Shown here in pieces: positions 12,851 through 51,207 of a stretch of 55,624 nt of DNA. Position numbers and translations under genes: made by a program. Numbering within the stretch: the first letter of the stretch is position 1; each line of letters begins with the position of its first letter. The notes below the pieces were generated by a model. It was not told where the DNA came from and searched no databases. It saw nothing but the letters and a program-made list of their open reading frames with translations. The DNA comes from Hyphomicrobiales bacterium (GTDB lineage Bacteria; Pseudomonadota; Alphaproteobacteria; Rhizobiales; Beijerinckiaceae): contig JAIXSM010000067.1 of the NCBI GenBank assembly GCA_027484655.1, positions 1-55,624 of the forward strand. Direction: 5' to 3'.

Positions 12851-13606
12851 TCAGATACGCAGCTTCTTGAAAATCGGCTCCGGGATCGCGCCGATGACGC
12901 CCATCACGGCGCGCCACACCGGCTTGGCGTAGACCACATCGCGCTTCTTGAGGACCGCGGCGTAGATCTGGTCCGCCACCGCTTCGGGCGTCGCGGTGAG
13001 GGCGGGAGGCAGTTTCATGCCCTCGGTCATGCGGGTGGCCACGAAGCCGGGCTTCACGGTCATCACATGCACGCTCTTTTTCGCCAGCCGGTTGCGCAGG
13101 CCTGACAGGAAGGCGGTGAAGCCGGCCTTGGCCGAGCCGTAGACGTAGTTCGTCGCACGCCCACGGTCGCCCGCCACGGAACTGACGCCGATGATGACCC
13201 CGGAGCCACGCGCCTCAAACCGGTTGGCGATGACGCCGAGAATCGCCGCCGGGCCCTCGAAGTTCGAGCGCATCACGCGCACGGCGGCCTCCAGATCAGT
13301 CTCGCTCTCGCGCTGGTCGCCGAGCAGGCCCACGACGCACACGACCGCCTCCGGCAGCGCGGGGAGCGTGTCGATGAAATGCTCATGGGCGTGGATCGCG
13401 AGCGCGTCGAAGGCGTGCAGGCTCACGGGAACGCTGTAACGCACCTCGATGTCGGCCTTCGCGGTCTCCAGCTCCTCGGGCCGGCGTGCGGCGAGCTGGA
13501 TGGGGTGGCCTTCGCGCGCGAACCGCCGGGCGACGGCGAGCCCGATGTCGGAGGCGCCGCCCAGAACGAGGACTGGACCTTTTTCAAGAACGGGATCTTT
13601 GGTCAC
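12851..13606 (-). CDS. dprE2: DprE2-like short-chain dehydrogenase (decaprenylphosphoryl-2-keto-ribose reductase)
   Basis: 251 residues. The NAD(P)-binding motif GGASDIG is at 16-22, the catalytic serine region GVSSVAGDRG at about 140-149, and the YxxxK pair is Tyr156/Lys160. In mycobacteria DprE2 reduces the 2-keto intermediate made by DprE1, completing epimerisation of ribose to arabinose on the polyprenyl phosphate. The start is GTG at 13606, overlapping the DprE1 stop by four bases (GTGA). The assignment rests on the family plus its partner genes; SDR sequence alone would not fix the substrate. It is the last gene of the four-gene operon. Confidence 0.82.
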   Translation of the reverse strand: MTKDPVLEKGPVLVLGGASDIGLAVARRFAREGHPIQLAARRPEELETAKADIEVRYSVPVSLHAFDALAIHAHEHFIDTLPALPEAVVCVVGLLGDQRESETDLEAAVRVMRSNFEGPAAILGVIANRFEARGSGVIIGVSSVAGDRGRATNYVYGSAKAGFTAFLSGLRNRLAKKSVHVMTVKPGFVATRMTEGMKLPPALTATPEAVADQIYAAVLKKRDVVYAKPVWRAVMGVIGAIPEPIFKKLRI

Positions 13607-14952
13607 AATGAAAGCCTTCCTGATTGCAATGACTTGAAGGAGGCGGCGAAGCCCTGGGCCTCCCGCGCCTCACGGAACGCGGCGATGCGGGAATCGGACC
13701 GCTCGAAGGTGGAGCGGCTCATGCGCGCGTCCTTTGCCAGATAGAAGCGTCCGCCATGGGCCAGCGTGATCGCATCCAGCCGCTCCATGAGCGCCAGCGC
13801 GCGGGGGCTCGCGGGGAAATCAAGCGCCAGCGTGTAGCCTTCCATGGGAAACGAGATCGCGCCCGCGCCTGCATTCGCGCCCGCGCCCATGCGCTTGAGC
13901 ACGGCGAGGAACGAGCCCTGCCCGGACGCCGAGATGGCCTCAAGCAACTCGCCGAGACCCGCCTTCGAGGATTCGAGCGGAAGGACGCACTGAAACTGGG
14001 CGAAGCCGCGCCGGCCGTAGATGCGGTTCCAGTCAGCGATGGCGTCGAGCGGATAGAAATAACTGTCCCAGTCCACCAGCCGCTCGCCGGCGCCTGCGAC
14101 GCCGCGCCGCCAGTAGAGGGCGTTGAAGGCCCGCACCGACCACGGATTGAGCGCCCACGACGGGGCGTCGAACGGGGCGGCCATCATCCGCCTGCGCGGC
14201 GTGGCGAAGGGCGCGGCGCGCTTGGGATGGTCGAGTTCGTCCAGCCGGGCGTGCTCGCCCAGAAGCAGGATGGAGCGGCCGAGATCGGCGCCGCGCGCCA
14301 GACAGTCGATCCACGCGACCGAGTATGTCGCGTCAGCGGACGCCTCGAACGTCTCCATGGCGGCGGCGAGATTGGGCGCAGCCACGCTCGTCTGGCGGAT
14401 CCAGCCGCTCTCGACCCGCATGAGCCGAAACGCGGCGCGCACGATGATTCCGGTGAGCCCCATGCCGCCGATGGTTTGCGCGAACAGATCGGCGTTCTCG
14501 GTCCGCGAGCAGCGTGTGAGGGCGCCATCCGGCCCCATGACGTCGATCCAGTCGACGAAGGCGCCGAAGGAGCCGGCCTTGTGGTGATTCTTGCCATGCA
14601 CGTCGGCGGCGATCATGCCGCCGATGGTCACATGCTTGGTGCCTGGCGTGACGGGCGGAAAAAACCCGCGCGGCAAAAAGCTCTCGATCACATCGCCCAG
14701 CGCGACGCCGCCCTCCGCCGTCAGAACGCCTGTCTGCGCGTCGAACGCGAGCATGTGCCGGAAGCCGGTCATGGCGATGGTGGAGGCTGGCGCGAGCGCG
14801 CTGTCGCCATAAGAGCGGCCGAGGCCGCGCGCGATCCCGGGCCCGCGCGCCAGCGCCGCGCGCAGCTCCTCGATGTTGCGCGGACGCGTCACGACGCACT
14901 CGGTCTGCGGAAAACGGCCCCAGCCGGAGAGTTTCAGGATCATTTCGCGCAT
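13603..14952 (-). CDS. dprE1: DprE1-like FAD-dependent decaprenylphosphoryl-ribose 2-oxidase
   Basis: 449 residues from the ATG at 14952 (GAGG five bases before it; a second ATG at 14943 forms an ATGA overlap with the upstream stop). The FAD-binding segment includes ARGLGRSYGDSAL (41-53) and TIGGMIAADVHGKNHHKAGSFG split across 109-130. From memory of the Mycobacterium tuberculosis enzyme, its active-site histidine motif HGKNHH and catalytic Lys418 (here Lys407 in YLAKDAR) are kept. The benzothiazinone-target Cys387 aligns, with identical spacing to the lysine, to Ala376 in TLALDFP. The enzyme oxidises the 2-hydroxyl of polyprenylphosphoryl ribose. Confidence 0.88.
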   Translation of the reverse strand: MREMILKLSGWGRFPQTECVVTRPRNIEELRAALARGPGIARGLGRSYGDSALAPASTIAMTGFRHMLAFDAQTGVLTAEGGVALGDVIESFLPRGFFPPVTPGTKHVTIGGMIAADVHGKNHHKAGSFGAFVDWIDVMGPDGALTRCSRTENADLFAQTIGGMGLTGIIVRAAFRLMRVESGWIRQTSVAAPNLAAAMETFEASADATYSVAWIDCLARGADLGRSILLLGEHARLDELDHPKRAAPFATPRRRMMAAPFDAPSWALNPWSVRAFNALYWRRGVAGAGERLVDWDSYFYPLDAIADWNRIYGRRGFAQFQCVLPLESSKAGLGELLEAISASGQGSFLAVLKRMGAGANAGAGAISFPMEGYTLALDFPASPRALALMERLDAITLAHGGRFYLAKDARMSRSTFERSDSRIAAFREAREAQGFAASFKSLQSGRLSL

Positions 14953-38899: not shown

Positions 38900-39901
38900 T
38901 CAAGCGGCCCCCTGATTGCGGTCTGATCCCGGCAGCGGGCTCGACCCCTCTACGCTGCCCCCGCTAGCGGGAAAATTGATTCGCTCCTTCTCGATCACCA
39001 GCGGAAAGTTGCGACTGTAATTCAGGAGCAATCCGACGTACTCGCCCAAAACGCCAAGAGCGAACAGTTGCAACGCGGAAAGAAAGAATACTGCGATCAG
39101 CACCGGGGCCACGCCAATCGGAAGACTGTACCAAAACGTCAACTTGATGATGAGGTAAGCGAAGCCGACGATAAAACTGACGACTGCGCCAGAGAAGCCG
39201 AGGAGCGTCATAAGCCGAAGCGGCGCCCGGGATGACACCGAAAGGCCAAGAAGCGCGAAATCAGCAAGCGAGTAAAGATTGTAGCTTGATTTTCCGTGCA
39301 ATCGCGGCGGCTGGTCGTACATGATGACCGATCGTTCAAAACCAACTTCAAGCACAAGCCCGCGAAAATAAGGCTCAGGCTCGCGAAGCGTGCGCAATGC
39401 GTCAAGGATGCACCGGTCATAAAGCCCGTACCCTTCAAAGTCCGGAATTTGCTCGGTTCTCGAAAGGACGCGGAGCAGTCTATAGTAGAGAGCACGGGGC
39501 CAACGTTGAAACCAGTTTTGGTCACCTGAGCGTTTCACCGCCAGAACAGCCTTCGCGCCAGCACGCCAGCGCGCGATCATCTCGGGGATGACTTCTGCCG
39601 GTGTCTGCAGATCCGCCAAGACAGGAATGACTGCATCTCCACGAGCCTGAAGCAAGGCGTGGTAGGGGGAACGCGCCGGGCCGAAGTTGCGCGCGTTCAC
39701 GATCACGCGCACATGTGGGTCTCCGGCCGCCAACACGCGCAGGCGGTCTACGGTCGAGTCCATTGAACAATTATCGATGAAAATGTGCTCATACGCGACA
39801 TCCGGCGCGTGCGCGGCGAGCACATCACGCACCGCGGCATGACAGGCCTCAATCGTGGCCTCTTCGTTGTAGCATGGCGTTACAATGCTGAGCGTCACCA
39901 T
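38900..39901 (-). CDS. GtrB-like polyprenyl-phosphate glycosyltransferase (GT2)
   Basis: 333 residues. The GT2 domain has SIVTPCYNEEATIE, HIFIDNCSMDST, RNFGPARSP and the metal motif region VLADLQTPAEVIP, where DLQTP replaces the usual DLQDP. Two C-terminal transmembrane helices (about 232-262 and 270-300) follow KSSYNLYSLADFALLGLS, as in GtrB/ArnC-type enzymes that load a sugar onto undecaprenyl phosphate at the inner membrane. It is the natural partner for the GtrA domain fused to RfbH and the GT-C-like membrane protein in the nearby operon. It is divergent from the methyltransferase gene. Confidence 0.87.
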   Translation of the reverse strand: MVTLSIVTPCYNEEATIEACHAAVRDVLAAHAPDVAYEHIFIDNCSMDSTVDRLRVLAAGDPHVRVIVNARNFGPARSPYHALLQARGDAVIPVLADLQTPAEVIPEMIARWRAGAKAVLAVKRSGDQNWFQRWPRALYYRLLRVLSRTEQIPDFEGYGLYDRCILDALRTLREPEPYFRGLVLEVGFERSVIMYDQPPRLHGKSSYNLYSLADFALLGLSVSSRAPLRLMTLLGFSGAVVSFIVGFAYLIIKLTFWYSLPIGVAPVLIAVFFLSALQLFALGVLGEYVGLLLNYSRNFPLVIEKERINFPASGGSVEGSSPLPGSDRNQGAA

Positions 39902-39993
39902 TCGTCAAACCATTCGCGCGGGGCTGCATCAGGAAACTTGGACGTAACCATCGAGGCGTTAAAGATTGCGGAACGCTCATTTCGAAGGTGCCC

Positions 39994-40854
39994 ATGAAAA
40001 TCAGTCACGCCTGCGTCGCTTGTCACAGCACCCGCCTCAGAAGTCGCTCGGCCGTGTTAATGCCCTTCCTGGCTGCACGCATATTCGGCTGGCAGCCAAC
40101 GACAATCACACCCGAGTGGGGGCTCCGCGACATTGACGCCGGACAGGCGTACTCGCTTTGCGCGACGCTCATGTGCGACGAATGCGGGATGATTTTCCTG
40201 GACATGCGATTTGATGCGGACGAGATGGATGCTCTCTACCGCGACTATCGAGGCGCGCAGTACACTGAATTGCGCAACAGGATCGAGCCCGGCTACGCGG
40301 CGCTGAACGCGATGCTGCGCGAAGGCGGTGACTACACCGCACAGGTCGAGGCGTTCATTCGCCCGCATCTCACATGCGATCGGCCGCGCGTGTTGGACTG
40401 GGGTGGCGATACTGGAGCAAACACGCCTTTCAGGGCAGAAGCTGTCCGCCATGATGTTTATGACATATCGCAGCGCACACTCGTGGAGGGAGCGACAGCC
40501 GTCACCGAAGACGAAATCAGCCCGGGCGCGTACGATCTCGTCGTCCTCGCCAACGTCCTGGAGCATGTGTCCCATCCAACTGCTACACTCCGCCTTGTCA
40601 CAAGCGCAATGGATCAGGACACATTACTTTATATCGAGTTGCCTTATGAAGACTTGATCCGGCATCACCATTCGGATGACGAGCGACTTGCGCTGAAACG
40701 GCATTGGCACGAGCATATCAACTTCTTTACTCCAGACTCTCTGGACCACCTGCTTCGAAACACCGGCCTCCAAACGGTGAATCGAACGACCAAAGCCGTC
40801 ACAGTGGCGGGCCGGGAGCGACATGTGTTCTTGATTGCGGCTCGCCTCGCATAG
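39994..40854 (+). CDS. Zinc-knuckle class I SAM methyltransferase, sugar C-/O-methyltransferase-like
   Basis: 286 residues from the ATG at 39994 (GAAGG upstream). The N-terminus has two paired-cysteine knuckles, CVACHSTRL and CDECGMIFLD, as in sugar C-methyltransferases. The SAM fold follows with VLDWGGDTGANTPF and YDLVVLANVLEHVSHP, and the late HEHINFFTPDSLDHLL motif. This group modifies nucleotide-linked sugars or glycans. It is the only plus-strand gene in the accessory region, and ends three bases before the convergent reductase gene. The substrate is not determinable. Confidence 0.82.
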   Translation: MKISHACVACHSTRLRSRSAVLMPFLAARIFGWQPTTITPEWGLRDIDAGQAYSLCATLMCDECGMIFLDMRFDADEMDALYRDYRGAQYTELRNRIEPGYAALNAMLREGGDYTAQVEAFIRPHLTCDRPRVLDWGGDTGANTPFRAEAVRHDVYDISQRTLVEGATAVTEDEISPGAYDLVVLANVLEHVSHPTATLRLVTSAMDQDTLLYIELPYEDLIRHHHSDDERLALKRHWHEHINFFTPDSLDHLLRNTGLQTVNRTTKAVTVAGRERHVFLIAARLA

Positions 40855-40857
40855 CGA

Positions 40858-41901
40858 TCAGCGCGAGGCGCGTCCTGTTCGAAGGGCGTGCATGATCGTA
40901 ACCCTGATCGCTTCGTCAAGCGACGTCCACACGTCAAGACCAAGGCCACGCGCATTCGTAATGGCGGGAACGTATCTTTGGCGCGCGCCGTCGCCTGTTT
41001 GCCCAAGTATGCATACGGGCGGCCTGCCAGGCGCATGCGCTGAAACACATGTGGCGACTTCGCGAAGCGCGTAAGCCTGATCTGAACCCACGTTATAGAC
41101 GGATCCCGCCGGCGCATGGGCGAGGAGTGTCAGCAACCATGCGGCAAGGTCGCCCGCGTAGAGATATGACCGGACCGTCTCACCATTGCCCCTTATCAGA
41201 ATCGGGCGTCCAGCCACCGCATCAGCGATGAAATTGCCAATGGCGAAGTGTCCTTCCAATGGCAGTCCGGGGCCAATGAACGCGAACCCACGCGCAATGA
41301 CAGGCGCGAAGTCCGCGCTTGCCTGAGCGAGGCAGAGCTGTTCGGCAAGACGTTTCGCTTGCCCATACACAGACCCGCCCTCAAGCACAGGTGGCGCTCC
41401 CTCAAAACTCTCAGGCATCCATTCAAGAGTTGGGGGCTGCGGTCCGTACACCGCTCCAGAGCTGACGTACAACATACGGCGGACGCCGCTCGTGCGCGCA
41501 AACTTCAAAACTCGGACGGAACCTCTGACGATTGTGTCCGCCAGGGTCAGCGAGTCCTGATCGGCTGTCGCGCTCGTGTCCGTCGCTGCGTGAATGACAT
41601 GGGTGAAGCTCCCGCCAGGGGCCTCAAATGTCCTGACATCTCCTTCCACGAGTTTGATTGCGGGGTCGTTCGCGAGACCCGGCGCAGCGCGCTGAAACGC
41701 CTGCGCGTCTCGGGTCAGTACGACAGCATGAAGATCATATCGGCGCGAGGCGCGAGCCAAACTCCCCAAAAGCCAAAGCCCGAAGAAGCCCGTTCCCCCC
41801 GTGACAAAGATACGCGCGCCCCTGAGCGCTTCGAGCGCCGACGAAGAGCGTGCGAGCACCTGCTCGAGATCCCCGACCTCAACGCCCGCAAACACCGTCA
41901 C
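40858..41901 (-). CDS. NAD(P)-dependent epimerase/reductase of the extended SDR family
   Basis: 347 residues. The nucleotide-binding motif IFVTGGTGFFGLWLL is at about 31-45, and the catalytic Ser and YxxxK lie in YVSSGAVYG and GSVYGQAKRLAE. The C-terminal half has IRGNGETVRSYLYAGDLA and YNVGSDQAYALREVA, typical of nucleotide-sugar epimerases/dehydratases. It starts at GTG, overlapping the upstream stop by four bases (GTGA). As the last gene of the CDP-sugar operon it may do the final reduction or epimerisation, comparable to YerF in yersiniose synthesis (inference). Confidence 0.85.
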   Translation of the reverse strand: MTVFAGVEVGDLEQVLARSSSALEALRGARIFVTGGTGFFGLWLLGSLARASRRYDLHAVVLTRDAQAFQRAAPGLANDPAIKLVEGDVRTFEAPGGSFTHVIHAATDTSATADQDSLTLADTIVRGSVRVLKFARTSGVRRMLYVSSGAVYGPQPPTLEWMPESFEGAPPVLEGGSVYGQAKRLAEQLCLAQASADFAPVIARGFAFIGPGLPLEGHFAIGNFIADAVAGRPILIRGNGETVRSYLYAGDLAAWLLTLLAHAPAGSVYNVGSDQAYALREVATCVSAHAPGRPPVCILGQTGDGARQRYVPAITNARGLGLDVWTSLDEAIRVTIMHALRTGRASR

Positions 41902-43742
41902 GCCTGCGCCTCGCGAGGCCTGGCGCTCAATGACACAGGATCGAGCGGAACGATCATATTCCGCTGCAATTCCTCAAGGGAGAGAAGCGGCGACATGTCT
42001 TCAAGCGGCATTGAGCGCATCGAACCATCAGGAAGCGAAATCGCCGCGCATTTTGGCGCTAGCGCCTCATCGGAAACGAGTTGAATATCAACCAGCAGTG
42101 GACCGGGCCGACCAAGGGCATCCCCTATCTTGCGTTCAAGGTTCGCACCGTCATCAATCCGCATGAACTCCCAGCCAAAGGCGCGAGCCAGATCTTCGAG
42201 ATCAGGCATCTCCAGCCCGGCGTTCGAGCTGCTCCCAACATAACGTCCGCCAAAGTAATTGCGCTGAGTGTTCCGAATGGAGGCATAACCTTTGTTGTTC
42301 AGAACAAAGAGGCGAACCGGCGCGCGTAAGGTGGCCAGCGTCTGCAACTCCTGCACGTTCATCATGAGCGAGCCATCGCTCTCGATACAAACGAATGGCC
42401 GCCCGTCTGACGCCATGTGGGCGCCTATGGCAGAGGGCAGCGCATACCCCATCGCCCCGAGCCCGGACGTCAGGAAGACCCGCTGTCCTTCCTTGTTTTG
42501 AAAACCCATGTAGAAGAACTCTATCGCCAACCCCGACGACCCCGTGACGATCAGGCAATCGCTCGGGAGCGCGCTCGAAAGAGCCTGCGTTATGCGATTA
42601 TGGCTGATGGGTCCCGCACAGTCGGCAGGTGAGCCATGCGCGGCGGGAAATCGAAGCTTCCATGCATCGCATTGTGCAAGCCAATCCGCACGATCCAGCG
42701 CCATGGAAGCATCCGTTTGCGCAAGTAACGCATCAATGAACTCAGCAGCGTTGGCGCAAATCACCCTTGCATAGCCAGGAACCCCGTTGAATTTCTGAAG
42801 CTCGCTCGGATCGACATCGACCACGATCTTTTGCGCGGCGCGACCAAAGTTCTCCAAATTATGCGCTGTAACGACAGCGTCCAGCCGCGCGCCGATCGTG
42901 AGAATAACGTCGGCGTTCTGCACGGCAAAGTTCGGCGCACGAAGCGCGACGACACCGGGCTTCCCGACATTAAGCGGATGATCGAAAGGGATCAGGTCAC
43001 TGGCGTTCCACGTCGTCACGACTGGAACTTGTAACGCTTCAACAAGCTGCCTGAACGCTCGTGCGGCGCCGGCGAGCCGAACTCCATGTCCAGCGAGGAT
43101 TAAGGGGCGACGCGCGCCGACGAGGGCCGCCATCACCTCATGCACATCCTGTGGCGCGATGAATACGCTCGCGGCAGTGTCGGCAGTGTATGCCGGAAGA
43201 TCATCCGGGACGATGGTTGCGTTCTGCACATCAAGCGGGATATCGACCCAAACGGGGCCCCGGCGCCCACTCGTCGCAAGATGAATTGCTTCATCAAGAA
43301 CACGACGTATGTCCAACGGGTCCGTCACCGTGGCCGCGTACTTGGTGATTGGGCGCACAATCGAAACTATATCCACTTCCTGCGGACCGCGCTGTCGAAC
43401 GCCGCTGTCGCCCATCAAATCGCTTCGCTTCACCTGCCCGGACAAAATGAGCAACGGCACGGATTCAATCCACGCACCCGCGCAGGGAGTGACAGCATTG
43501 GTGGCGCCTGGACCCGTGGTTACGAGCGCGCAGCCTAGATGGCCATGGATCCGGGAATAGGCTTCAGCCGCTATCGCGGAGGCCTGCTCATGATGGTTCG
43601 CGACATATTGGACGCTCTCGTGGTTCCCAAACGCATCATTGAGATGCATCGCGCCGCCGCCCGGGACGAGGAAGACGCATCCCACGCCTTCCGCAGCGAC
43701 CCGGTTGGCCACGTAGTCCGCGAGCCGGATGGATTGTTTCAT
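41898..43742 (-). CDS. Thiamine-diphosphate enzyme, acetolactate synthase-like (YerE-like candidate)
   Basis: 614 residues with all three ThDP-enzyme domains. The N-terminal domain has FLVPGGGAMHLND and the catalytic glutamate in ANHHEQASAIAAEAYSR. The central domain has PLILAGHGVRLAGAA. The C-terminal cofactor-binding segment is ESDGSLMMNVQELQTL ... LNNKGY, where ESDGS replaces the usual GDGS. The operon otherwise encodes CDP-3,6-dideoxyhexose synthesis rather than amino-acid synthesis, so a YerE-type role is favoured: adding a two-carbon unit from pyruvate to a 4-keto sugar. An atypical acetolactate synthase remains possible. It starts 18 bases after the neuB-like gene. Confidence 0.8.
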   Translation of the reverse strand: MKQSIRLADYVANRVAAEGVGCVFLVPGGGAMHLNDAFGNHESVQYVANHHEQASAIAAEAYSRIHGHLGCALVTTGPGATNAVTPCAGAWIESVPLLILSGQVKRSDLMGDSGVRQRGPQEVDIVSIVRPITKYAATVTDPLDIRRVLDEAIHLATSGRRGPVWVDIPLDVQNATIVPDDLPAYTADTAASVFIAPQDVHEVMAALVGARRPLILAGHGVRLAGAARAFRQLVEALQVPVVTTWNASDLIPFDHPLNVGKPGVVALRAPNFAVQNADVILTIGARLDAVVTAHNLENFGRAAQKIVVDVDPSELQKFNGVPGYARVICANAAEFIDALLAQTDASMALDRADWLAQCDAWKLRFPAAHGSPADCAGPISHNRITQALSSALPSDCLIVTGSSGLAIEFFYMGFQNKEGQRVFLTSGLGAMGYALPSAIGAHMASDGRPFVCIESDGSLMMNVQELQTLATLRAPVRLFVLNNKGYASIRNTQRNYFGGRYVGSSSNAGLEMPDLEDLARAFGWEFMRIDDGANLERKIGDALGRPGPLLVDIQLVSDEALAPKCAAISLPDGSMRSMPLEDMSPLLSLEELQRNMIVPLDPVSLSARPREAQA

Positions 43743-43760
43743 GGGACCATGCCCTTCCGC

Positions 43761-45287
43761 CTAAAGCCAGTACCGGAGAATGGTCTTGCGGTTCGTATTC
43801 TTGTTTATTGCCTCATCGCAATAGAATGAGTCCTCCGCCACATGCGTCGATGAGATTTCCTCAAAAACACACCCTGTCTCACTGTCGAACTCATGGACAG
43901 CTCCTGCCATGATCGTGATGACATCGCCGGGATGACAGACCCTGCGTCGCCCATCGACCGTGAGATTGAGCGTTCCATGCAGCACATGGAACGTTTCTTC
44001 CTTTATCTTGTGGAATTGCGCTGGATGTCTCTGGCCAGGAAGCACCGCGATGAGCTTCTTGCAATAGCCCCGGTTAACCACCGTAATCATCGTCGCGCCA
44101 GCCTCGTCGAACCGCTCAAGGCCATAGTGGTGGGACAATTCCAGGACAGCTTCACCTGGCACCACGCCCTTACTTTCGGTGATGAGCTGCTTCACTCGCA
44201 TAACGATAGCGCGCACCTGAGAGTGCACGTCGGTGCATGTTGTATCCGTATGCAAGACTGGCGAACCAGCCTCGAGCTGGCGCCCTGAAAAATACTGCCG
44301 ATATTTGGACCACTCATTTGCGGTAATCTGATCGGTCTGCGCTGGAATCGCAAAGCACACATCATCATCGGTCAGGCGTAGGCCTGCTTTCACATCTCTT
44401 TTGAGATACACACCCCTTCGCAACTCACCCAGCGCTTTTCTTTCAGATTCGCACGGTCCGTCCCGTAATGTGCTCCGCCCAGCCATTGCGAAGGCCGTCT
44501 CCGCCGCCTCAAGCCACCGGCGAACCTGTTCGGGATTGGCGGAATAGGCATTGAGAGAGTACTTGTCTGTTGGCACGCCAACATGCTTTTCAAAAATGCA
44601 CGCACCCTTGGCAATGGCCATAACCACCGGTAGGATCTCGTCTGGCTCCTCATGTGTAGAGTAGCCAACACGGACCGATGGATATCGCGCTCGCAGTAGG
44701 TCAATTTGATTCAACTCCAGCGAGGCGGACGGAGTCGGGTACTCCGCGACACAAGCCATCAGTGAAAGAGCCTTCTGGCGATTCGTGAAGAAAGATACCA
44801 CTCGGTCCATATCTTCGATCGATGCCCCCCCTGTCGAAGCAATAATCGGCAGAGTGGCGCTGGCGATTTCCTCAAGCAAGGGCCAGTCGGTGAAAGAACA
44901 GCTTGCGATCTTCAGCGTATCAAAGCCATCATCCACAATACGGCGCACCGATACTTCGTCGAATGGGGTGCATACCGCTTTGAACCCTCGGGCCTTGATC
45001 GCAGAGACCAACGCCGAGGTTTCCTTGCGCGATAGCCTGGTGTCCATAAAGCGCTTTACCATCCGCACATCCATACGCGCGTGGAATGATGGATGAATGA
45101 ATGTATCAAGCTCACGATATTGCAGCTTGAATGCGAAATCGTAATTGAATCTCTCCGAGACCTTGGCGCATTCATCAATAATGCGCAGCCCATGGTCGAG
45201 ATCGCCCATATGATTGTTGGCCATTTCAAACACGAACAATGGTGATTTGTCCGATCTTGTTTCAATCAATTGATGCGCCGCAGCCAT
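43761..45287 (-). CDS. NeuB-SAF-cupin fusion (sialic-acid-synthase-like)
   Basis: 508 residues from the ATG at 45287, preceded five bases earlier by GGAGG. Residues about 10-270 are NeuB-like: FVFEMANNHMGDLDHG, FAFKLQYRELDTF, STGGASIEDMDRVVSFF and VGYSTHEE. A SAF-like domain covers about 285-345 (LRRGVYLKRDVKAGLRLTDDD). Residues about 390-500 are a cupin with HPAQFHKIKEETFHVLHG and HPGDVITIMAGAVHEF. NeuB enzymes condense PEP with an N-acyl or free aldose. The cupin may isomerise the sugar substrate or product. The substrate is unknown; no NeuA (CMP-transferase) or NeuC is in the window. Confidence 0.85.
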   Translation of the reverse strand: MAAAHQLIETRSDKSPLFVFEMANNHMGDLDHGLRIIDECAKVSERFNYDFAFKLQYRELDTFIHPSFHARMDVRMVKRFMDTRLSRKETSALVSAIKARGFKAVCTPFDEVSVRRIVDDGFDTLKIASCSFTDWPLLEEIASATLPIIASTGGASIEDMDRVVSFFTNRQKALSLMACVAEYPTPSASLELNQIDLLRARYPSVRVGYSTHEEPDEILPVVMAIAKGACIFEKHVGVPTDKYSLNAYSANPEQVRRWLEAAETAFAMAGRSTLRDGPCESERKALGELRRGVYLKRDVKAGLRLTDDDVCFAIPAQTDQITANEWSKYRQYFSGRQLEAGSPVLHTDTTCTDVHSQVRAIVMRVKQLITESKGVVPGEAVLELSHHYGLERFDEAGATMITVVNRGYCKKLIAVLPGQRHPAQFHKIKEETFHVLHGTLNLTVDGRRRVCHPGDVITIMAGAVHEFDSETGCVFEEISSTHVAEDSFYCDEAINKNTNRKTILRYWL

Positions 45288-45367
45288 TTTGACCTCCAAA
45301 ATCGATTTACTAGAAACGTTTTCAATGTTCTCTCTTCGACACGAGTCGACTCTCTATAATTAGAAAG

Positions 45368-46927
45368 TCACCCCGGCAATTGAGCTTCAGCCGCTCTAAT
45401 TCCGCCAAAAATGCCAGTCTGGTAAAGCTCCTCGTTCAAGCTCCAACATTCGCGGGGCGCGGTCGGGCGCAGTTCACTGCTTCCACGGATCATGAGCCAG
45501 TCGGGAATCACGCTCCAACGCGCGTGATAGTGAGGCGACAGTTCGCCGGCTCCAAGCTCACGTGCGCTCTGAACAATTGAACAATAACTTATTGGCCAAC
45601 CGGGAGCCAGATGATGCATGGCGAGCGTTCCGACTGCCGACAGACTGCAAAGGACCCCGGTTACCATGCCAAGCCATCTATCTCTCACGTGTTGGATTGA
45701 AGCGCCAAGGAGAACGTAGCCGAAAAGAAACCATAAAATTGTCAGCGGCACGATTGACCCGCGCATAACGATGTCGTTCGATGTTCCGAAGATAAATGCG
45801 GGAAGTGTGAAAAGAAGAATGAGAGAAATGACAGCCGCCATACGATATTGCTTGGGCAGCGACTTGCGATTGAGAAATAGGAACGCTGCATGCGGGGCCA
45901 AAGCTAGCACGAACAAAGAATAAAGTGAGAAAGTTTCGGCGGTCGCGGGGGCTGTCGAAAGGGGAATGCTTGAAGCGTCGGCGGTGAAATAAATGACCAC
46001 CGGCGCGAAGCAGCAGGCGATGAGCGCCGAGATCCACATTCTTGGCCGCACTACGTGCTCACGCAGCCGCCCTAACAGCAGGAAGGGAACAGCAAAGACC
46101 ACGAGCGGCGACCAGAAGAGAGCCGCTGAGGTTGTTGCAGCGACGCTCGCGCCGTCGAGTTCCTCCTCAAAATGAAGGAGAAATGCAACTGCAATCCACC
46201 AGCCCGGGATCGCGTGATTCGGAACCCAGAAGAACTGGATCATCGCGGATGAGTATTGGTAGGTCGGATGCCACGCGTCCAATCCGTAGACAAGGAGACC
46301 ATTGAATGGCGGCAGGGCGCCCAAGAACCAGAGTAGAGCCACCGGGAGGATCGCACACGTTCCCGACAACAGCAGAAGGGCGGCGTGTCGAAGACCAAAT
46401 CCCAGTGCGCAGATGAAGTAGAGGATCACACCAAGAGCGAAGCTGTTCTGAATCCATAAAGCGATGTGGGCGCTGAACAACCCAGAGGAAAACCCCAACA
46501 TTGCAGGCATGACGTACATGCCGATTGGGGCCCTCAGCAGGTACTCTTCGCCTCCAACACGATAGGTTGCTGGAAAGCCGGCCGCGCTCAAATCGGCGAG
46601 CACTGCATCGCGGATGCGCCAGTCGAAAGTTGGTGGGAAAAAATGCAGCGAACCGGAGTAGAACAAGAGCGCTGCAGCAATGCAAATGCATGCTCCGAGC
46701 AGCAAGGGGTTCACCCTTTGCTGCAGGACGCCGTCTGGGCGCATGGAGGGGTCACGCGCGACGAGAGCAATCACGCCAAGACATCCGGTGAGAAGGACCG
46801 CGGCTGGGAGCGGTTTGAAGCCAACCGAGACAAGCGCTGTCGGGATCACCATCAGCACGCTCATACCCAAAAACACGGTGCGATTCGTTATGACTATCGA
46901 ACGGGCGAGGGCGCCAACCGTGTTCAC
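45368..46927 (-). CDS. Polytopic membrane protein, GT-C glycosyltransferase-like
   Basis: 519 residues starting at GTG, which overlaps the RfbH-GtrA stop by four bases (GTGA). About eleven hydrophobic segments fill residues 20-440, and a short soluble C-terminus follows (residues about 450-519). The first long loop contains SLHFFPPTFDWRIRDAVLADL with acidic residues placed as in GT-C enzymes that use polyprenyl-phosphate sugars. I do not recognise a named family. The context (GtrA domain just upstream, GtrB-like gene nearby) suggests the strain-specific third component of a Gtr system. It is noticeably more AT-rich than core genes. Confidence 0.7.
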   Translation of the reverse strand: MNTVGALARSIVITNRTVFLGMSVLMVIPTALVSVGFKPLPAAVLLTGCLGVIALVARDPSMRPDGVLQQRVNPLLLGACICIAAALLFYSGSLHFFPPTFDWRIRDAVLADLSAAGFPATYRVGGEEYLLRAPIGMYVMPAMLGFSSGLFSAHIALWIQNSFALGVILYFICALGFGLRHAALLLLSGTCAILPVALLWFLGALPPFNGLLVYGLDAWHPTYQYSSAMIQFFWVPNHAIPGWWIAVAFLLHFEEELDGASVAATTSAALFWSPLVVFAVPFLLLGRLREHVVRPRMWISALIACCFAPVVIYFTADASSIPLSTAPATAETFSLYSLFVLALAPHAAFLFLNRKSLPKQYRMAAVISLILLFTLPAFIFGTSNDIVMRGSIVPLTILWFLFGYVLLGASIQHVRDRWLGMVTGVLCSLSAVGTLAMHHLAPGWPISYCSIVQSARELGAGELSPHYHARWSVIPDWLMIRGSSELRPTAPRECWSLNEELYQTGIFGGIRAAEAQLPG

Positions 46928-48741
46928 GGACGCCTCCCGAACACAACATATCGGCTCAGAATAAAGCTCATGACCACTGCGGCAGGCAGGAGCAAGAGGC
47001 CCGCTGCCCACGATGCCATGCCAATTCCCTCCAAGGCACGCAAGCCGATGGCCTGGAACGTCAGGATAAATGCATGAGCGCCAAAGAACGGGATCAGGCG
47101 GTCAGGGCTCGTACTTCCGAACACGTACCCTCCCGTACTCCAGAAATTGAAAGATAACGCCAGCACATAGCTCGCGACTAAAGCGCCAAAGCTGCTCGGG
47201 ATGACGGCAAGGGCAGCGATGAAGAGGGAGTACCCAACAGCCGTATTCAGAATCCCGACCGTCACGAAACGCGCCAAAAGCGGGTCCAGAAGAATCTTCC
47301 GCGTGCGGCCCATTAAACCTTCAACAGGGCCGCTCGCTGTGTTTGGTTCCGACAGCGCAGATAATGCCGGCGAAGAAGGCTCGACGCTGGCTCCATCCGG
47401 GGGCCTTGAACCCATACCGCCCCGCAGGAGATCATGCAGGGTCTCAATCGTATAGTTGAGCGCGGGTTCCGAGAGGCCGGGGTACAGGCCGATCCAGAAT
47501 GTACGGTCAACGACAATGTCGGCATTGACCAGCGGCGCCGGCGCCCGGAAGGTCCGCTCTTTCATGTATGGCTGCCGCACAAGATTGCCGCCAAACAGAA
47601 GGCGCGTTCCAATACGGCGCGCATTAAGGGCCTTCACAAGCTCATCTCTGGTCGACGAAGCGCCCTCTCTAAGGGTAAGGGGGTAGCCGAACCATGACGG
47701 ATCGGCGCCCTCGATTGAGGCTGGAAGAATGAAGTATTCCTCCAGCTCCTTGAGGCCATCTTGCAGCGTCGCGAAGTTTCGGCGTCGTTCCGAGATAAAG
47801 CTCTGAAGCCGGTCAAGTTGCGCAAGGCCGACTGCGGCCTGCATATCGGTTATTTTCAAATTGAAGCCAAGATGTGAATAGACATACTTGTGATCGTAGC
47901 CTGTCGGGAGGTCGCCAAGCGTCCAGCCGAATCTGTTGTTACAGGTGTTGTCGCATCCAGGTTTGCAATAGCAGTCGCGACCCCAATCGCGAAACGACTC
48001 CATTACCTTCGCCAGCATGAGATTATCTGTGAAGACGGCGCCGCCCTCGCCCATTGTAATATGATGCGCGGGATAGAAGCTAAGTGTCCCGATGTCACCG
48101 AAAGTGCCGACAGGCTTCCCGTTAACAGTAGCGCCCAGCGCGTCGCAGCAATCCTCGATGAGATAGAGATCGTATTTGTCGCAGAACGCCCGGATGGCGC
48201 GGACATCGAATGGATTTCCAAGAGTATGCGCAAGCATGACCGCACGAGTGCGCGGGGACACCGCAGCTTCCAGGGCGGATACGTCGATATTGTAGGTTGG
48301 TAAATGCACATCGACGAAGACCGGAGTCATACCCCACAGAATCGCGGGATTGATCGTTGTTGGAAATCCAGTGGCGCAGGTTATGACTTCGTCGCCCGGC
48401 TGGAGGCGCCGTCCTTTCAACTTATGGGAGGTTAGCGCGGAGAAGGCGATCAGGTTCGCTGATGAGCCCGAGTTAACGGTCAGTGTATGCCGCGCGCCGA
48501 CGCATTGCGCGAGACGCTCCTCGAAAGCATCGTTGAACCGTCCGCTTGTGAGCCAGAAGTCAAGGGCCGAGTCGACCAGAAACTGCATTTCCCGAGCGCC
48601 ATAAACGCGCCCTGCTACAGGGACGAGCGAAACAGCCGGATCAAAGGGCGGCGGCACGTGGGCAAGCGCATGGTAGCGCTCAACGAGCTCAAGAATTTCG
48701 CGACGTATCGTGGCCGCGGAAGGATCAACCGGGTTAGACAT
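46924..48741 (-). CDS. rfbH: RfbH-GtrA fusion: CDP-4-keto-6-deoxyglucose 3-dehydrase with C-terminal GtrA membrane domain
   Basis: 605 residues. Residues 1 to about 437 are RfbH/DdhC (E1), a PMP and [2Fe-2S] enzyme of 3,6-dideoxyhexose synthesis. The diagnostic histidine in place of the PLP lysine is in FYPAHHITMGEGGA, and the cluster cysteines lie in DCYCKPGCDNTC (about 253-264). After a linker (about 440-478) comes a GtrA domain with four transmembrane segments (GILNTAVGYSLFI, ALSFNFWSTGGYVFG, final LSRYVVFGR). The start is ATG at 48741; an adjacent TTG could add one residue. The fusion links sugar synthesis to a flippase-like domain. The E3 reductase partner gene is not in the window. Confidence 0.9.
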   Translation of the reverse strand: MSNPVDPSAATIRREILELVERYHALAHVPPPFDPAVSLVPVAGRVYGAREMQFLVDSALDFWLTSGRFNDAFEERLAQCVGARHTLTVNSGSSANLIAFSALTSHKLKGRRLQPGDEVITCATGFPTTINPAILWGMTPVFVDVHLPTYNIDVSALEAAVSPRTRAVMLAHTLGNPFDVRAIRAFCDKYDLYLIEDCCDALGATVNGKPVGTFGDIGTLSFYPAHHITMGEGGAVFTDNLMLAKVMESFRDWGRDCYCKPGCDNTCNNRFGWTLGDLPTGYDHKYVYSHLGFNLKITDMQAAVGLAQLDRLQSFISERRRNFATLQDGLKELEEYFILPASIEGADPSWFGYPLTLREGASSTRDELVKALNARRIGTRLLFGGNLVRQPYMKERTFRAPAPLVNADIVVDRTFWIGLYPGLSEPALNYTIETLHDLLRGGMGSRPPDGASVEPSSPALSALSEPNTASGPVEGLMGRTRKILLDPLLARFVTVGILNTAVGYSLFIAALAVIPSSFGALVASYVLALSFNFWSTGGYVFGSTSPDRLIPFFGAHAFILTFQAIGLRALEGIGMASWAAGLLLLPAAVVMSFILSRYVVFGRRP

Positions 48742-48782
48742 CAACGACCATCGCTTAAAATCGAGTTGTGTGAAGAATTCTG

Positions 48783-49838
48783 CTACCCGTTCAATGCGAG
48801 ATAAGAATCGACCTGCGCCAAAGTGATCGCACGCACATCAGCGCCCCCTGCATAAGCCCGATACCAGTCGGCGCTCCATTGAACGGTGTTGCTGAAGTCC
48901 AACAAAGGTCGCCATCCCAGGGTGTGCCGGGCCTTCGTTGAATCAAGACGCAACGTCACAGTTTCAGGAGGATGCGGCGTAAGGTCTGCTATCCACGCTG
49001 CAGGAGTTCCCCAGGCGGCGGCTAGTTTGGTCACCAACGCCTCCACGTCGTGCTCGTCATCCTCGTCAGGTCCGAAGTTCCATGCTCCCGCGAGGGTTTG
49101 TCGCCATGCCTGCTCCGCAAGCAGGAGGTATCCAGACAACGGGTCAAGGACATGCTGCCACGGGCGTACGGCGCCGGGCATGCGCACTGAGACAGGTTGG
49201 CCACTCATGAATGCGCGGACCGCATCCGGGACAATCCTGTCAGTCGCGAAGTCTCCCCCGCCGATGACGTTGCCGCTGCGAGCGGTCACAATACGGAGAG
49301 TCTGAATCTGGCGAAAAGCAGCCTCGAAAGAGGAGCTGACGAGTTCCGCGCATGCCTTGCTGGCGCTGTAGGGGTCGCGTCCGCCCAGGCGAGCGTTCTC
49401 GCTATGGCGAACGCCCCGGGGATCGACTTCGTAGCATTTATCCGAGGTGACGATGAGCACGGCTCGAACATTTGAGCGCCGACGGGCCGCCTCAAGAATG
49501 TGTGCGACGCCGAGAACGTTCACCCGATACGTTTCGATTGGATCGACGTAACCAGCCTTCACGAGCGGCTGCGCCGCAAGATGCAGAATGATTTCGGGAT
49601 CAGCTTCGTTCAACGCGTTCGCCAATGCCTCTGCGTTACAGATGTCGGCTCGGAAATCACCGGCGAGGTCGCGGCGAACGTGGGCGAGTTCGAAGAGCGA
49701 TTGGTTTACGGGCGGTAATGCATAGCCAGTCACAACGGCGCCGAGACGACTCAGGAGCAACGTCAGCCATGAGCCCTTGAAGCCCGTGTGGCCCGTAACC
49801 AGCACGCGACGATCGTTCCAGAAGCCTTGCACGGTCAC
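48783..49838 (-). CDS. rfbG: CDP-glucose 4,6-dehydratase
   Basis: 351 residues from a GTG at 49838 that overlaps the rfbF stop (GTGA) and has GGAGG five bases before it; ATG codons at 49871 and 49850 are less consistent with this. The Rossmann motif VLVTGHTGFKGSWLTLLL is characteristic of RfbG (GHTGFKG). YxxxK is in DPYSASKACAELV, and TSDKCYE provides the catalytic Thr/Asp/Lys-like segment. It converts CDP-glucose to CDP-4-keto-6-deoxyglucose with bound NAD. It is the second enzyme of the pathway, followed by rfbH-gtrA 41 bases downstream. Confidence 0.94.
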   Translation of the reverse strand: MTVQGFWNDRRVLVTGHTGFKGSWLTLLLSRLGAVVTGYALPPVNQSLFELAHVRRDLAGDFRADICNAEALANALNEADPEIILHLAAQPLVKAGYVDPIETYRVNVLGVAHILEAARRRSNVRAVLIVTSDKCYEVDPRGVRHSENARLGGRDPYSASKACAELVSSSFEAAFRQIQTLRIVTARSGNVIGGGDFATDRIVPDAVRAFMSGQPVSVRMPGAVRPWQHVLDPLSGYLLLAEQAWRQTLAGAWNFGPDEDDEHDVEALVTKLAAAWGTPAAWIADLTPHPPETVTLRLDSTKARHTLGWRPLLDFSNTVQWSADWYRAYAGGADVRAITLAQVDSYLALNG

Positions 49839-50605
49839 CACACCCTCCATGGAGGGGCGCCGCCTGACCATTGCTCTTCAAGGAAAGTCTTGTCTCGGAG
49901 AGTGTCCATGGGATGCCAGAAGCCCTGGTGCCGAAAGGCGCGCAGTTCATCGTTGCGGGCGAGCCATTCCATGGGACCAAGCTCCCATACGGCGCCATCG
50001 CCATCCAGCAAGTCGAGCACCTTTGGCGAAAGAATAAAGAATCCGCCGCTCACCCATCCGCCGTCTTCGTGAGGCTTTTCGATAAAATTGACGACTTTGG
50101 TTCCGTCGAAGGCGATTGCGCCAAAGCGGCGGGGTGGGCGCACAGCAGTGACAGTCGCCATTTTTCCATGAGCGCGATGAAATCCCAGCGCCGCAGCGAT
50201 ATCCATATCGCCAACACCATCGCCATATGTCATCGCAAACGCCTCATCGTCACGGATATGATCAGCGATGCGACGGATCCTCCCTCCAGTCTGGGTGTTT
50301 TCTCCGGTGTCAATCAGCGTCACGCGCCAAGGCTCAGCTGTGTCGCGCAAGATCTGCATCGTGTTTGCGCGGACGTCGAAAGTCACGTCCGCAGTATGCA
50401 GGAAGTAATTAGAGAAAAATTCCTTGATGTAGTATCCGCGATACCCGAGGCAGATCACGAAGTCGTTCAGTCCGTAAGCCGAATAGATTTTCATGATGTG
50501 CCACAGGATCGGGCGGCCGCCGATCTCGATCATTGGCTTGGGCCGGACCGCCGTCTCCTCCGCGAGGCGCGTGCCAAACCCGCCTGCCAAAATGACAACC
50601 TTCAT
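49835..50605 (-). CDS. rfbF: Glucose-1-phosphate cytidylyltransferase
   Basis: 256 residues, the usual length, from the ATG at 50605 (GGGGAG six bases before). The nucleotidyltransferase signature AGGFGTRLAEETAVRPKPM is complete, followed by GGRPILWHIMKIYSAYG and MTYGDGVGDMDIAAAL. It makes CDP-glucose from glucose-1-phosphate and CTP, the committed step to CDP-linked 3,6-dideoxyhexoses. It is the first gene of a seven-gene minus-strand operon. A 15-bp palindrome lies 61 bases upstream of its start. Confidence 0.95.
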   Translation of the reverse strand: MKVVILAGGFGTRLAEETAVRPKPMIEIGGRPILWHIMKIYSAYGLNDFVICLGYRGYYIKEFFSNYFLHTADVTFDVRANTMQILRDTAEPWRVTLIDTGENTQTGGRIRRIADHIRDDEAFAMTYGDGVGDMDIAAALGFHRAHGKMATVTAVRPPRRFGAIAFDGTKVVNFIEKPHEDGGWVSGGFFILSPKVLDLLDGDGAVWELGPMEWLARNDELRAFRHQGFWHPMDTLRDKTFLEEQWSGGAPPWRVW

Positions 50606-51117: not shown

Positions 51118-51207
51118 TGGCGGAGGGAGCGGGATTCGAACCCGCGATACGGTTTCCCGTATACACACTTTCCAGGCGTGCGCCTTCAACCACTCGGCCA
51201 CCCCTCC
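51118..51207 (-). tRNA. tRNA-Ser (anticodon GGA)
   Basis: 90 bases including an encoded CCA (51118-51120). Read on the minus strand, GGAGGGG pairs with the 3' CTCCCTCC side to form the acceptor stem. GCCGAGTGGTTGAAGGC is the D arm. CTGGAAA contains the anticodon GGA. A long variable arm (TACGG/CCGTA) is present, as required for class II tRNA-Ser, and GCGGGTTCGAATCCCGC is the T arm. All stems pair. It decodes UCC/UCU. Its 3' end points toward the accessory sugar region. Confidence 0.97.

What the first reader, a model, noticed from the sequence alone, without database searches (positions are those of the whole stretch)
38900..50605. Candidate new glycan system: CDP-3,6-dideoxyhexose pathway, ThDP branching enzyme, NeuB-cupin protein and a Gtr-type transfer module in one region
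Seen: seven minus-strand genes with tight overlaps (rfbF, rfbG, rfbH-gtrA, GT-C-like membrane protein, neuB-SAF-cupin, acetolactate-synthase-like ThDP enzyme, extended-SDR reductase), flanked by a GtrB-like GT2 and a zinc-knuckle methyltransferase. Known: RfbF/G/H make CDP-4-keto-3,6-dideoxyglucose (with an E3 reductase), YerE adds a two-carbon branch to it in Yersinia, and GtrA/GtrB/Gtr proteins flip and transfer polyprenyl-phosphate sugars to O-antigen. Inference: the region makes and attaches an unusual, probably C-branched and possibly chain-extended sugar. The set as a whole is not one I know.
Basis: partly seen in the sequence, partly recalled or inferred. Interest (0 to 1): 0.78.

Follow-up and report, generated by a model that had tools for sequence, protein, structure and literature searches.

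The report
Long-branched sugar gene island
A block of bacterial genes that very probably joins two sugars carbon-to-carbon to make an unusual long, branched sugar and moves it to the cell surface; such pathways are known from other bacteria, but the likely source of the long branch was not spelled out in the papers I could read.

Summary
The set is not new: RfbF-G-H-NeuB/cupin-ThDP recurs in 37 of 45 well-covered loci from many phyla, including Mycobacterium gastri, whose published gastriose is a C4-branched 3,6-dideoxyhexose. The ThDP enzyme groups with these and JanthE, not with the strain's acetolactate synthase or yersiniose-type enzymes. Best reading: NeuB condenses PEP with an aldose; the ThDP enzyme decarboxylates that 2-keto acid and adds the long acyl chain to C4 of CDP-4-keto-3,6-dideoxyglucose; the SDR reduces the new ketone. 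Support: NeuB keeps catalytic residues but not those for N-acetyl sugars; a CMP-sugar synthetase was found in 1 of 80 such loci but 17 of 20 canonical neuB loci; in Pseudomonas, NeuB accompanies 15 of 15 long-type ThDP genes and 0 of 7 other rfbH loci. Against: no E3 reductase gene; distant NeuB-cupins lack this ThDP. Chemistry, substrate and transfer are untested. A new member of the known YerE-like branched-sugar kind.

The parts
49835..50605 (-). rfbF: glucose-1-phosphate cytidylyltransferase
   Evidence: TIGR02623 equivalog 419 bits over cut-off 300
48783..49871 (-). rfbG: CDP-glucose 4,6-dehydratase
   Evidence: TIGR02622 equivalog 423 bits over cut-off 278
46924..48741 (-). rfbH-gtrA fusion: CDP-4-keto-6-deoxyglucose-3-dehydrase (residues 10-440) fused to a GtrA flippase domain (492-602)
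   Evidence: NF011936 697 bits over cut-off 423; PF04138 39 bits over cut-off 26. The fusion is not seen elsewhere: 0 of the 60 loci (of 80) with an RfbH match of 350 or more residues has a tail over 60 residues
45368..46927 (-). GT-C-fold membrane glycosyltransferase, proposed polyprenyl-P-sugar transferase
   Evidence: no Pfam/NCBIfam hit; 77 homologs, P0281 carrying a GtrA domain; model pLDDT 88.5; best structural matches are GT-C enzymes
43761..45287 (-). NeuB-SAF-cupin: proposed PEP-dependent synthase of a 2-keto-3-deoxy-aldonic acid; cupin half folds like D-lyxose isomerase
   Evidence: PF03102, PF07883; active-site columns; 2y0o match
41898..43742 (-). ThDP-dependent YerE-like carboligase, proposed to add the long acyl chain to C4
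   Evidence: three TPP domains; closest solved structure JanthE 8rph; trees
40858..41901 (-). extended SDR, proposed reductase of the new side-chain ketone
   Evidence: PF01370 118 bits; overlaps the ThDP gene by 4 nt
39988..40854 (+). SAM methyltransferase, proposed sugar (O-)methyltransferase
   Evidence: PF13489; 47-56% identical relatives in 5 of 80 loci
38900..39901 (-). GtrB-like GT2, proposed to load the sugar onto polyprenyl phosphate
   Evidence: PF00535; NCBIfam hits far below cut-off to PgfS and PRK10714 undecaprenyl-phosphate transferase; a relative of 38% identity or more in 12 of 45 well-covered loci
51118..51207 (-). tRNA-Ser (GGA) at the right border of the low-GC block
   Evidence: ARAGORN; no exact 13-mer or longer of it elsewhere in the window

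Best explanation
The island makes a long-branched 3,6-dideoxyhexose and hands it to a Gtr-type transfer machine. RfbF, RfbG and RfbH make CDP-4-keto-3,6-dideoxyglucose (from family knowledge). NeuB-cupin condenses PEP with a non-N-acetylated aldose into a 4-hydroxy-2-keto-3-deoxy acid (inferred). The ThDP enzyme decarboxylates that acid and adds the remaining acyl chain, one carbon shorter, to the C4 ketone of the CDP-sugar (inferred). The SDR reduces the new ketone and the methyltransferase may methylate the chain (inferred). The GtrB-like GT2 loads the sugar onto polyprenyl phosphate, the GtrA domain flips it and the GT-C protein transfers it to a surface glycan (inferred). Shown here are only gene content, conservation, active-site pattern, predicted folds and co-occurrence.
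For: Synteny: of 80 named loci, ThDP lies within 1 kb of NeuB in 75; of 45 with at least 9 kb on both sides, ThDP 45, RfbH 41, RfbF+G+H+ThDP 37. No CMP activation: a CTP_transf_3 match in 1 of 80 held stretches (L086, about 9 kb away) against 17 of 20 canonical neuB stretches, of which 1 has a ThDP relative. Reciprocal pattern: of 8 further NeuB-cupin loci, the 2 with this ThDP type have no CTP transferase; of the 6 without it, 4 have one within 4 kb and a fifth about 8 kb away. Pseudomonas: RfbH in 22 of 149 genomes; a NeuB-family match in 15 of 15 with the long-type ThDP and 0 of 7 others. NeuB columns E25, T110, F112, K129, S132, S154, Y186, S213, H215, E234 and H236 are kept; N74, E134, N184, D247 and R314 are replaced in 16 of 16 (site list in PMC6795526 passages). 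The tree joins the window to the M. gastri locus, which also has GtrA, GT2, SDR and two methyltransferases. Chemistry: ErwE prefers 4-hydroxy-2-oxo acids, MMAR_2332 resembles it, MygE takes C3-C8 keto acids (PMC12247030); caryophyllose is C12 with a C6 chain on C4 (PMC7821131), i.e. 6+6.
Against: No E3-type reductase gene for RfbH in the window or any of the 80 loci; best match in the own genome 28%. NeuB substrate unknown. The NeuB residue pattern does not single out the donor role: distant NeuB-cupins beside CTP transferases also have Ser134, Asn247 and no Arg314. Distant NeuB-cupins (39-44%) occur without this ThDP and without RfbH, so the cupin fusion alone does not predict branching; L213 among them carries another ThDP-type protein. 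A HAD hydrolase matched in 39 of 80 loci is missing here. MygE showed no activity with ketones and MMAR_2332 was not testable with them. 4 of 80 loci show no ThDP; three end within 4.3 kb downstream, and L026 has 10 kb upstream and 4.5 kb downstream. L086 has both ThDP and a CTP transferase; L187 has a canonical-scoring NeuB with a ThDP gene some 6 kb away and no CTP transferase. 'NeuB' and 'neuraminate' occur 0 times in the review.
Confidence: 0.7

Rival explanations
1. A yersiniose-type pathway plus an unrelated sugar acid: the ThDP enzyme uses pyruvate to put a two-carbon branch on C4, and NeuB makes a separate ulosonic acid.
For: RfbFGH + ThDP is the yersiniose logic (PMC12247030); JanthE, the nearest solved relative, accepts pyruvate.
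Against: No CTP_transf_3 match in the window or in 79 of 80 loci. The six NeuB-less Pseudomonas rfbH loci with a ThDP gene carry a distant enzyme (30-35%), and five of the six group away from the window's, L139 being a long branch on the NeuB side. NeuB tracks the ThDP subtype there, 15/15 against 0/7.
Confidence: 0.15
2. The ThDP enzyme ligates its acyl group to another acceptor (for example an aldehyde), so two sugars are made side by side with no branching at C4.
For: MygE and MMAR_2332 are reported active with benzaldehyde-type acceptors; ketone acceptance was not seen for MygE and is pending for MMAR_2332 (PMC12247030).
Against: RfbH accompanies NeuB-cupin and ThDP in 41 of 45 well-covered loci, and M. 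gastri is typified by a C4-branched 3,6-dideoxyhexose (title of Gilleron 1993 in a reference list).
Confidence: 0.1
3. A decayed or silent horizontally acquired remnant without function.
For: Low GC, tRNA border, no E3 or HAD gene in the window, NeuB-cupin in only 1 of 18 other same-genus genomes, some of them incomplete.
Against: All nine frames are intact; NeuB catalytic residues are kept.
Confidence: 0.05

Closest known systems
Gastriose (MygE) locus of Mycobacterium gastri (L025)
   Same: rfbF, rfbG, rfbH, NeuB-cupin (55%), ThDP (61%) in one locus, with GtrA (PF04138, 57.9 bits), GT2, Methyltransf_23 methyltransferase and Epimerase-type SDR; ThDP in the same supported clade
   Different: M. 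gastri has a separate gtrA, a HAD hydrolase and a second, FkbM-type methyltransferase; no relative of the window's GT-C was detected there. That this ThDP gene is the MygE of the literature is inferred, not checked by accession.
Yersiniose A pathway (YerE/YerF)
   Same: CDP-4-keto-3,6-dideoxyglucose as acceptor and ThDP carboligation at C4 as the proposed step (PMC12247030)
   Different: pyruvate donor; the putative Pseudomonas counterparts carry an E3-type reductase gene and no NeuB match; their ThDP enzyme branches elsewhere
JanthE (PDB 8rph/8rpi/8rpj)
   Same: closest solved structure, 391 bits; YerE-like; accepts long 2-keto acids and ketones
   Different: deep separate branch whose place is unsure; CDG motif where the window has SDG; physiological substrate unknown
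ErwE (erwiniose) and MMAR_2332 (caryophyllose)
   Same: hydroxylated 2-keto acid donors, branched sugar product (PMC12247030)
   Different: their sequences were not compared here; whether a NeuB serves them was not tested
Gtr three-component glycosylation systems
   Same: GtrA domain, GtrB-like GT2 and a GT-C-fold protein together
   Different: GtrA is fused to RfbH here; the GT-C family has no Pfam or NCBIfam model; acceptor unknown

Membership tests
YerE-like ThDP branching enzymes | ThDP decarboxylase-superfamily architecture | tested here: met
   PF02776, PF00205 and PF02775 all over cut-off
YerE-like ThDP branching enzymes | groups with characterised YerE-like enzymes, not acetolactate synthase | tested here: met
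   on one side of a 100/99 branch with JanthE and the M. gastri locus enzyme, own ALS (L002) and yersiniose-type enzymes on the other; JanthE's place is flagged as unsure (long branch) and YpYerE itself was not in the tree
YerE-like ThDP branching enzymes | CDP-4-keto-3,6-dideoxyhexose genes alongside | tested here: met
   RfbF, RfbG, RfbH over equivalog cut-offs
YerE-like ThDP branching enzymes | carboligation onto a ketone | not testable with these tools
   needs an enzyme assay
Yersiniose A pathway | E3 reductase gene in the cluster | tested here: not met
   no hit of a Pseudomonas E3 candidate (named by position and domains Fer2/FAD/NAD) in the window or 80 relatives; present in 6 of 7 NeuB-less rfbH loci
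Yersiniose A pathway | YerE-type ThDP enzyme without NeuB | tested here: not met
Gastriose-type (NeuB-cupin) loci | RfbF-G-H + NeuB-cupin + ThDP together | tested here: met
Gastriose-type (NeuB-cupin) loci | HAD hydrolase next to ThDP, as in M. gastri | tested here: not met
   none matched in the window; HAD-like match in 39 of 80 loci, so not universal
Sialic/nonulosonic acid synthases (NeuB) | PEP and metal active-site residues | tested here: met
   11 columns kept in 16 aligned proteins (E25 in 15, one truncated); the aligner put a gap at K53/Q55, so these two were not scored as kept
Sialic/nonulosonic acid synthases (NeuB) | Arg314-type N-acetyl recognition in the SAF domain | tested here: not met
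   Ile in 15 of 16, Phe in 1; role of Arg314 from PMC6795526 passages
Sialic/nonulosonic acid synthases (NeuB) | CMP-sugar synthetase nearby | tested here: not met
   no match in the window; 17 of 20 canonical neuB stretches have one
D-lyxose isomerase (cupin half) | fold | tested here: met
   2y0o TMt 0.69, rmsd 2.0 over 167 columns; sequence hit E 3e-5, but quercetin dioxygenase cupins score higher
D-lyxose isomerase (cupin half) | four metal ligands His-His-Glu-His | tested here: inconclusive
   by eye Q428, H430, E435, H469, all invariant in 16: one His is Gln; ligand identities recalled
Gtr-type glycan modification systems | GtrA + GtrB-like GT2 + GT-C-fold transferase | tested here: met
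Gtr-type glycan modification systems | transfer of a polyprenyl-P sugar to an envelope glycan | not testable with these tools
   needs mutant glycan analysis

The most novel reading that the evidence does not exclude
A carbon-carbon sugar-stitching relay: the cupin half converts a ketose to an aldose, the NeuB half of the same chain extends it with PEP to a Kdo-like 2-keto acid, and the ThDP enzyme decarboxylates that acid and welds it to a second sugar, giving C11-C13 monosaccharides. NeuB would then be a donor synthase for ThDP chemistry rather than a maker of CMP-activated sugar acids, and one rule (ulosonate minus CO2 on C4) would explain the branch lengths of gastriose and caryophyllose.
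Probability: 0.4. Interest if true: 0.72.

Novelty: new member of a known kind. Interest (0 to 1): 0.55.

Why it matters
Gastriose and caryophyllose carry long polyhydroxylated branches, and no paper I could read says what makes the 2-keto acid donor. The clustering gives a direct testable answer: NeuB makes it. If right, the branch length of unseen glycans could be predicted from the NeuB substrate, many known clusters gain a predicted product class, and a two-enzyme route to tertiary alcohols from PEP and plain sugars becomes available. Caveat: the papers most likely to contain this idea (Krug 2024, Steitz 2022, the Steitz 2019 thesis) were not held, so it may already be in print.

Tried and rejected
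Rejected: acetolactate synthase (tree; the likely housekeeping enzyme is elsewhere, G000:C51:134206, 33% identical); sialic-acid-type NeuB; classical yersiniose locus.

Led nowhere: att-type repeat of the tRNA-Ser end. Empty site: beside the left flanking gene in 10 relatives no island gene was seen (up to 16 kb, in L184 only 1.4 kb), but neither tRNA-Ser nor the right flank either, so no empty site is shown. The same-genus G596 cassette is a different one (NeuB-cupin 52%, ThDP 50%, no GT-C, GtrA, GtrB or methyltransferase match). Papers not held. No literature link of NeuB with YerE-type enzymes, nor of D-lyxose isomerase with NeuB. M. marinum papers searched for MMAR_2331/2332 annotation gave none. 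The VIA list for NeuB-cupin was filled by the NeuB half and did not test the cupin half.

Limits of counts: the 80 loci are the best 80 of 294 hits found with two peptide patterns, so they favour close relatives, and many are MAG contigs; the less selected sample showed that distant NeuB-cupins lack this ThDP. CTP transferases were sought with 8 reference frames, one of which (L094) looks antisense; 'found' means anywhere in the held stretch. For several of L122-L133 the stretch begins at or near rfbF, so absence of E3 upstream was not tested there; it was for the 45 loci with 9 kb on both sides. L029 and L059, two of the 15, had first been fetched because of NeuB-cupin; the ThDP and RfbH searches found their genomes independently. 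Loci of one lineage are not independent, so the Fisher values (6e-6, 3e-15, 1e-15) overstate the evidence.

Full report

How common the set is. One scan of named genomes with a NeuB-cupin profile returned the best 80 of 294 loci. ThDP lies within 1 kb of NeuB in 75 of 80 and is unseen in 4. Among the 45 loci with at least 9 kb on both sides: ThDP 45, RfbH 41, RfbF 38, RfbG 37, all four 37, SDR 21, GtrB-like 12, GT-C 4, GtrA 3, methyltransferase 4 (with its identity thresholds; relatives below them, such as the GtrA of M. gastri, are missed). The loci come from Pseudomonadota, Actinomycetota, Acidobacteriota, Chloroflexota, Cyanobacteriota, Verrucomicrobiota and others; many are MAGs.

Which enzyme the ThDP protein is. 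Its nearest solved structure is JanthE (8rph, 391 bits), ahead of acetohydroxyacid synthases (259 bits and less). In a 24-row tree it falls with loci from Enterovirga and Methylocystis (99/97), then with M. gastri, M. szulgai and Mycolicibacterium rhodesiae (100/99), and a 100/99 branch separates the 18 NeuB-associated enzymes plus JanthE from the strain's own acetolactate synthase and four putative yersiniose-type Pseudomonas enzymes (the root is midpoint, and JanthE and L002 are long branches). The 97-row tree agrees, except that L139, a NeuB-less locus, is a long branch on the NeuB side. The review PMC12247030 (passages and reference list read) says that YerE adds acetaldehyde from pyruvate to CDP-4-keto-3,6-dideoxyglucose; that ErwE makes erwiniose and prefers 4-hydroxy-2-oxo acids; that MMAR_2332 (caryophyllose) has a similar donor preference; that MygE (gastriose, M. 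gastri) takes C3-C8 2-keto acids with benzaldehyde as acceptor; [quoted passage not shown] The window is a further member. The M. gastri locus also holds GtrA, a GT2, a HAD hydrolase, two methyltransferases and an SDR.

Why NeuB should be the donor synthase. (a) Residues: against N. meningitidis NeuB, eleven columns of the site are kept, while N74, E134, N184, D247 and R314 are replaced (R, S, A/G, N, I/F) in all 16 aligned proteins. PMC6795526 (passages) lists E25, Q55, N74, T110, F112, K129, N184, Y186, S213, H215, E234, F288 and R314 as site residues and reports that Arg314 helps place the N-acetyl group and that R314A is inactive; S132, E134, S154, H236, D247 and K53 are recalled. The aligner put a gap at K53/Q55; K58 and Q60 of the window are invariant and probably correspond (by eye). 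F288 is not conserved. So it looks like a PEP-dependent synthase for a sugar without an N-acetyl group. This pattern is shared in part by NeuB-cupins that sit beside CTP transferases, so it speaks to the substrate, not to the product's fate. (b) No activation gene: a CTP_transf_3 match occurs in 1 of 80 NeuB-cupin stretches (L086; 0 of the 45 well-covered ones) but in 17 of 20 canonical neuB stretches, where a ThDP relative was found in 1 of 20. The M. gastri genome's best PF02348 match is 25 bits (cut-off 22.6). (c) Reciprocity: in eight further NeuB-cupin loci, the two with this ThDP (L210, L216) have no CTP transferase; of six without it, four have one within 4 kb and a fifth about 8 kb away, and one (L212) has neither. 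One of the six, L213, carries a different ThDP-type protein. (d) Subtype tracking in Pseudomonas: 22 of 149 genomes have RfbH. All 15 with the long-type ThDP have a NeuB-family match (13; L029 and L059), in 12 of them only over the NeuB part at 25-40% identity. The other 7 have none, though 6 of these have a ThDP gene. (e) Chemistry: NeuB-type condensation gives a 4-hydroxy-2-keto-3-deoxy acid, the donor class ErwE prefers. Loss of CO2 leaves a chain one carbon shorter: a C7 acid gives the C6 chain of caryophyllose, which PMC7821131 describes as a C12 sugar with a hydroxylated C6 chain on C4 (passages). A C8, Kdo-like acid would give a C7 chain, the branch I recall for the M. gastri sugar; its C4-branched 3,6-dideoxyhexose is confirmed only by a reference title.

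The cupin half. Its best structural matches are D-lyxose isomerases (2y0o, TMt 0.69, rmsd 2.0), and 2y0o also appears in the sequence search (E 3e-5), behind quercetin dioxygenase cupins. An isomerase that feeds NeuB an aldose is attractive, but one of the recalled metal ligands is Gln in all 16 aligned proteins, so activity is open.

What does not fit. RfbH needs an electron-transfer partner (E3; family knowledge). A Fer2/FAD/NAD reductase that I take for E3 by position and domains stands before rfbF in 6 of 7 NeuB-less Pseudomonas loci but matches nothing in the window or the 80 NeuB-cupin loci. The own genome's best match is 28% identical; it and the Pseudomonas protein both score best, below cut-off, with BenC-type reductases, so a reductase in trans is plausible. 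Otherwise the RfbH step differs: PMC9912281 (passages) notes relatives of caryophyllose that differ at C3, including a 3-O-methylated sugar in Rhodopseudomonas palustris. A HAD hydrolase matched in 39 of 80 loci but not the window, so whether the NeuB product is phosphorylated is open. MygE showed no ketone activity in vitro.

Verdict. Observation confirmed; interpretation largely right about the product class but wrong that the set is unknown. The locus is a new member of the YerE-like long-branched-sugar clusters, with a local twist (RfbH-GtrA fusion and an unannotated GT-C family) and a supported but untested proposal that NeuB makes the ThDP enzyme's donor. Literature checked for that proposal: searches, and the review ('NeuB' and 'neuraminate' occur 0 times in its main text). 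Krug 2024 and the ErwE and JanthE primary papers were not held, so priority cannot be claimed.

Noticed in passing
41898-43742: The ThDP-binding motif reads SDG instead of GDG (JanthE: CDG). Of 73 ThDP enzymes from NeuB-cupin loci, 51 have SDG, 18 GDG and 4 gave no match.
   Followed up: partly
L211, L213, L214, L215: Distant NeuB-cupin proteins (41-44%) beside CTP_transf_3 genes without this ThDP type: apparently nonulosonate-like pathways with the same cupin fusion. L213 also carries a different ThDP-type protein at 13061-14650.
   Followed up: partly
L187 (G240:C15): A canonical-scoring NeuB (TIGR03569, 531 bits) some 6 kb from a ThDP enzyme (35%) and near an RfbH-like fragment (43%) at the stretch's edge, with no CTP transferase found.
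   Followed up: no
L135, L138: Putative yersiniose-type Pseudomonas loci also carry a GT2 and a roughly 760-residue protein (in L135 its C-terminus is DUF7024), so Gtr-like transfer may be general for branched dideoxyhexoses.
   Followed up: partly
L122-L131: Pseudomonas long-type loci whose NeuB matches at only 25-28%; L126 also has a nucleotidyltransferase-like gene between rfbH and neuB (by eye), a further variant of the cassette.
   Followed up: partly
80 NeuB-cupin loci L009-L088: No match to the Pseudomonas E3-type reductase in any of 80 loci although most carry RfbH.
   Followed up: partly
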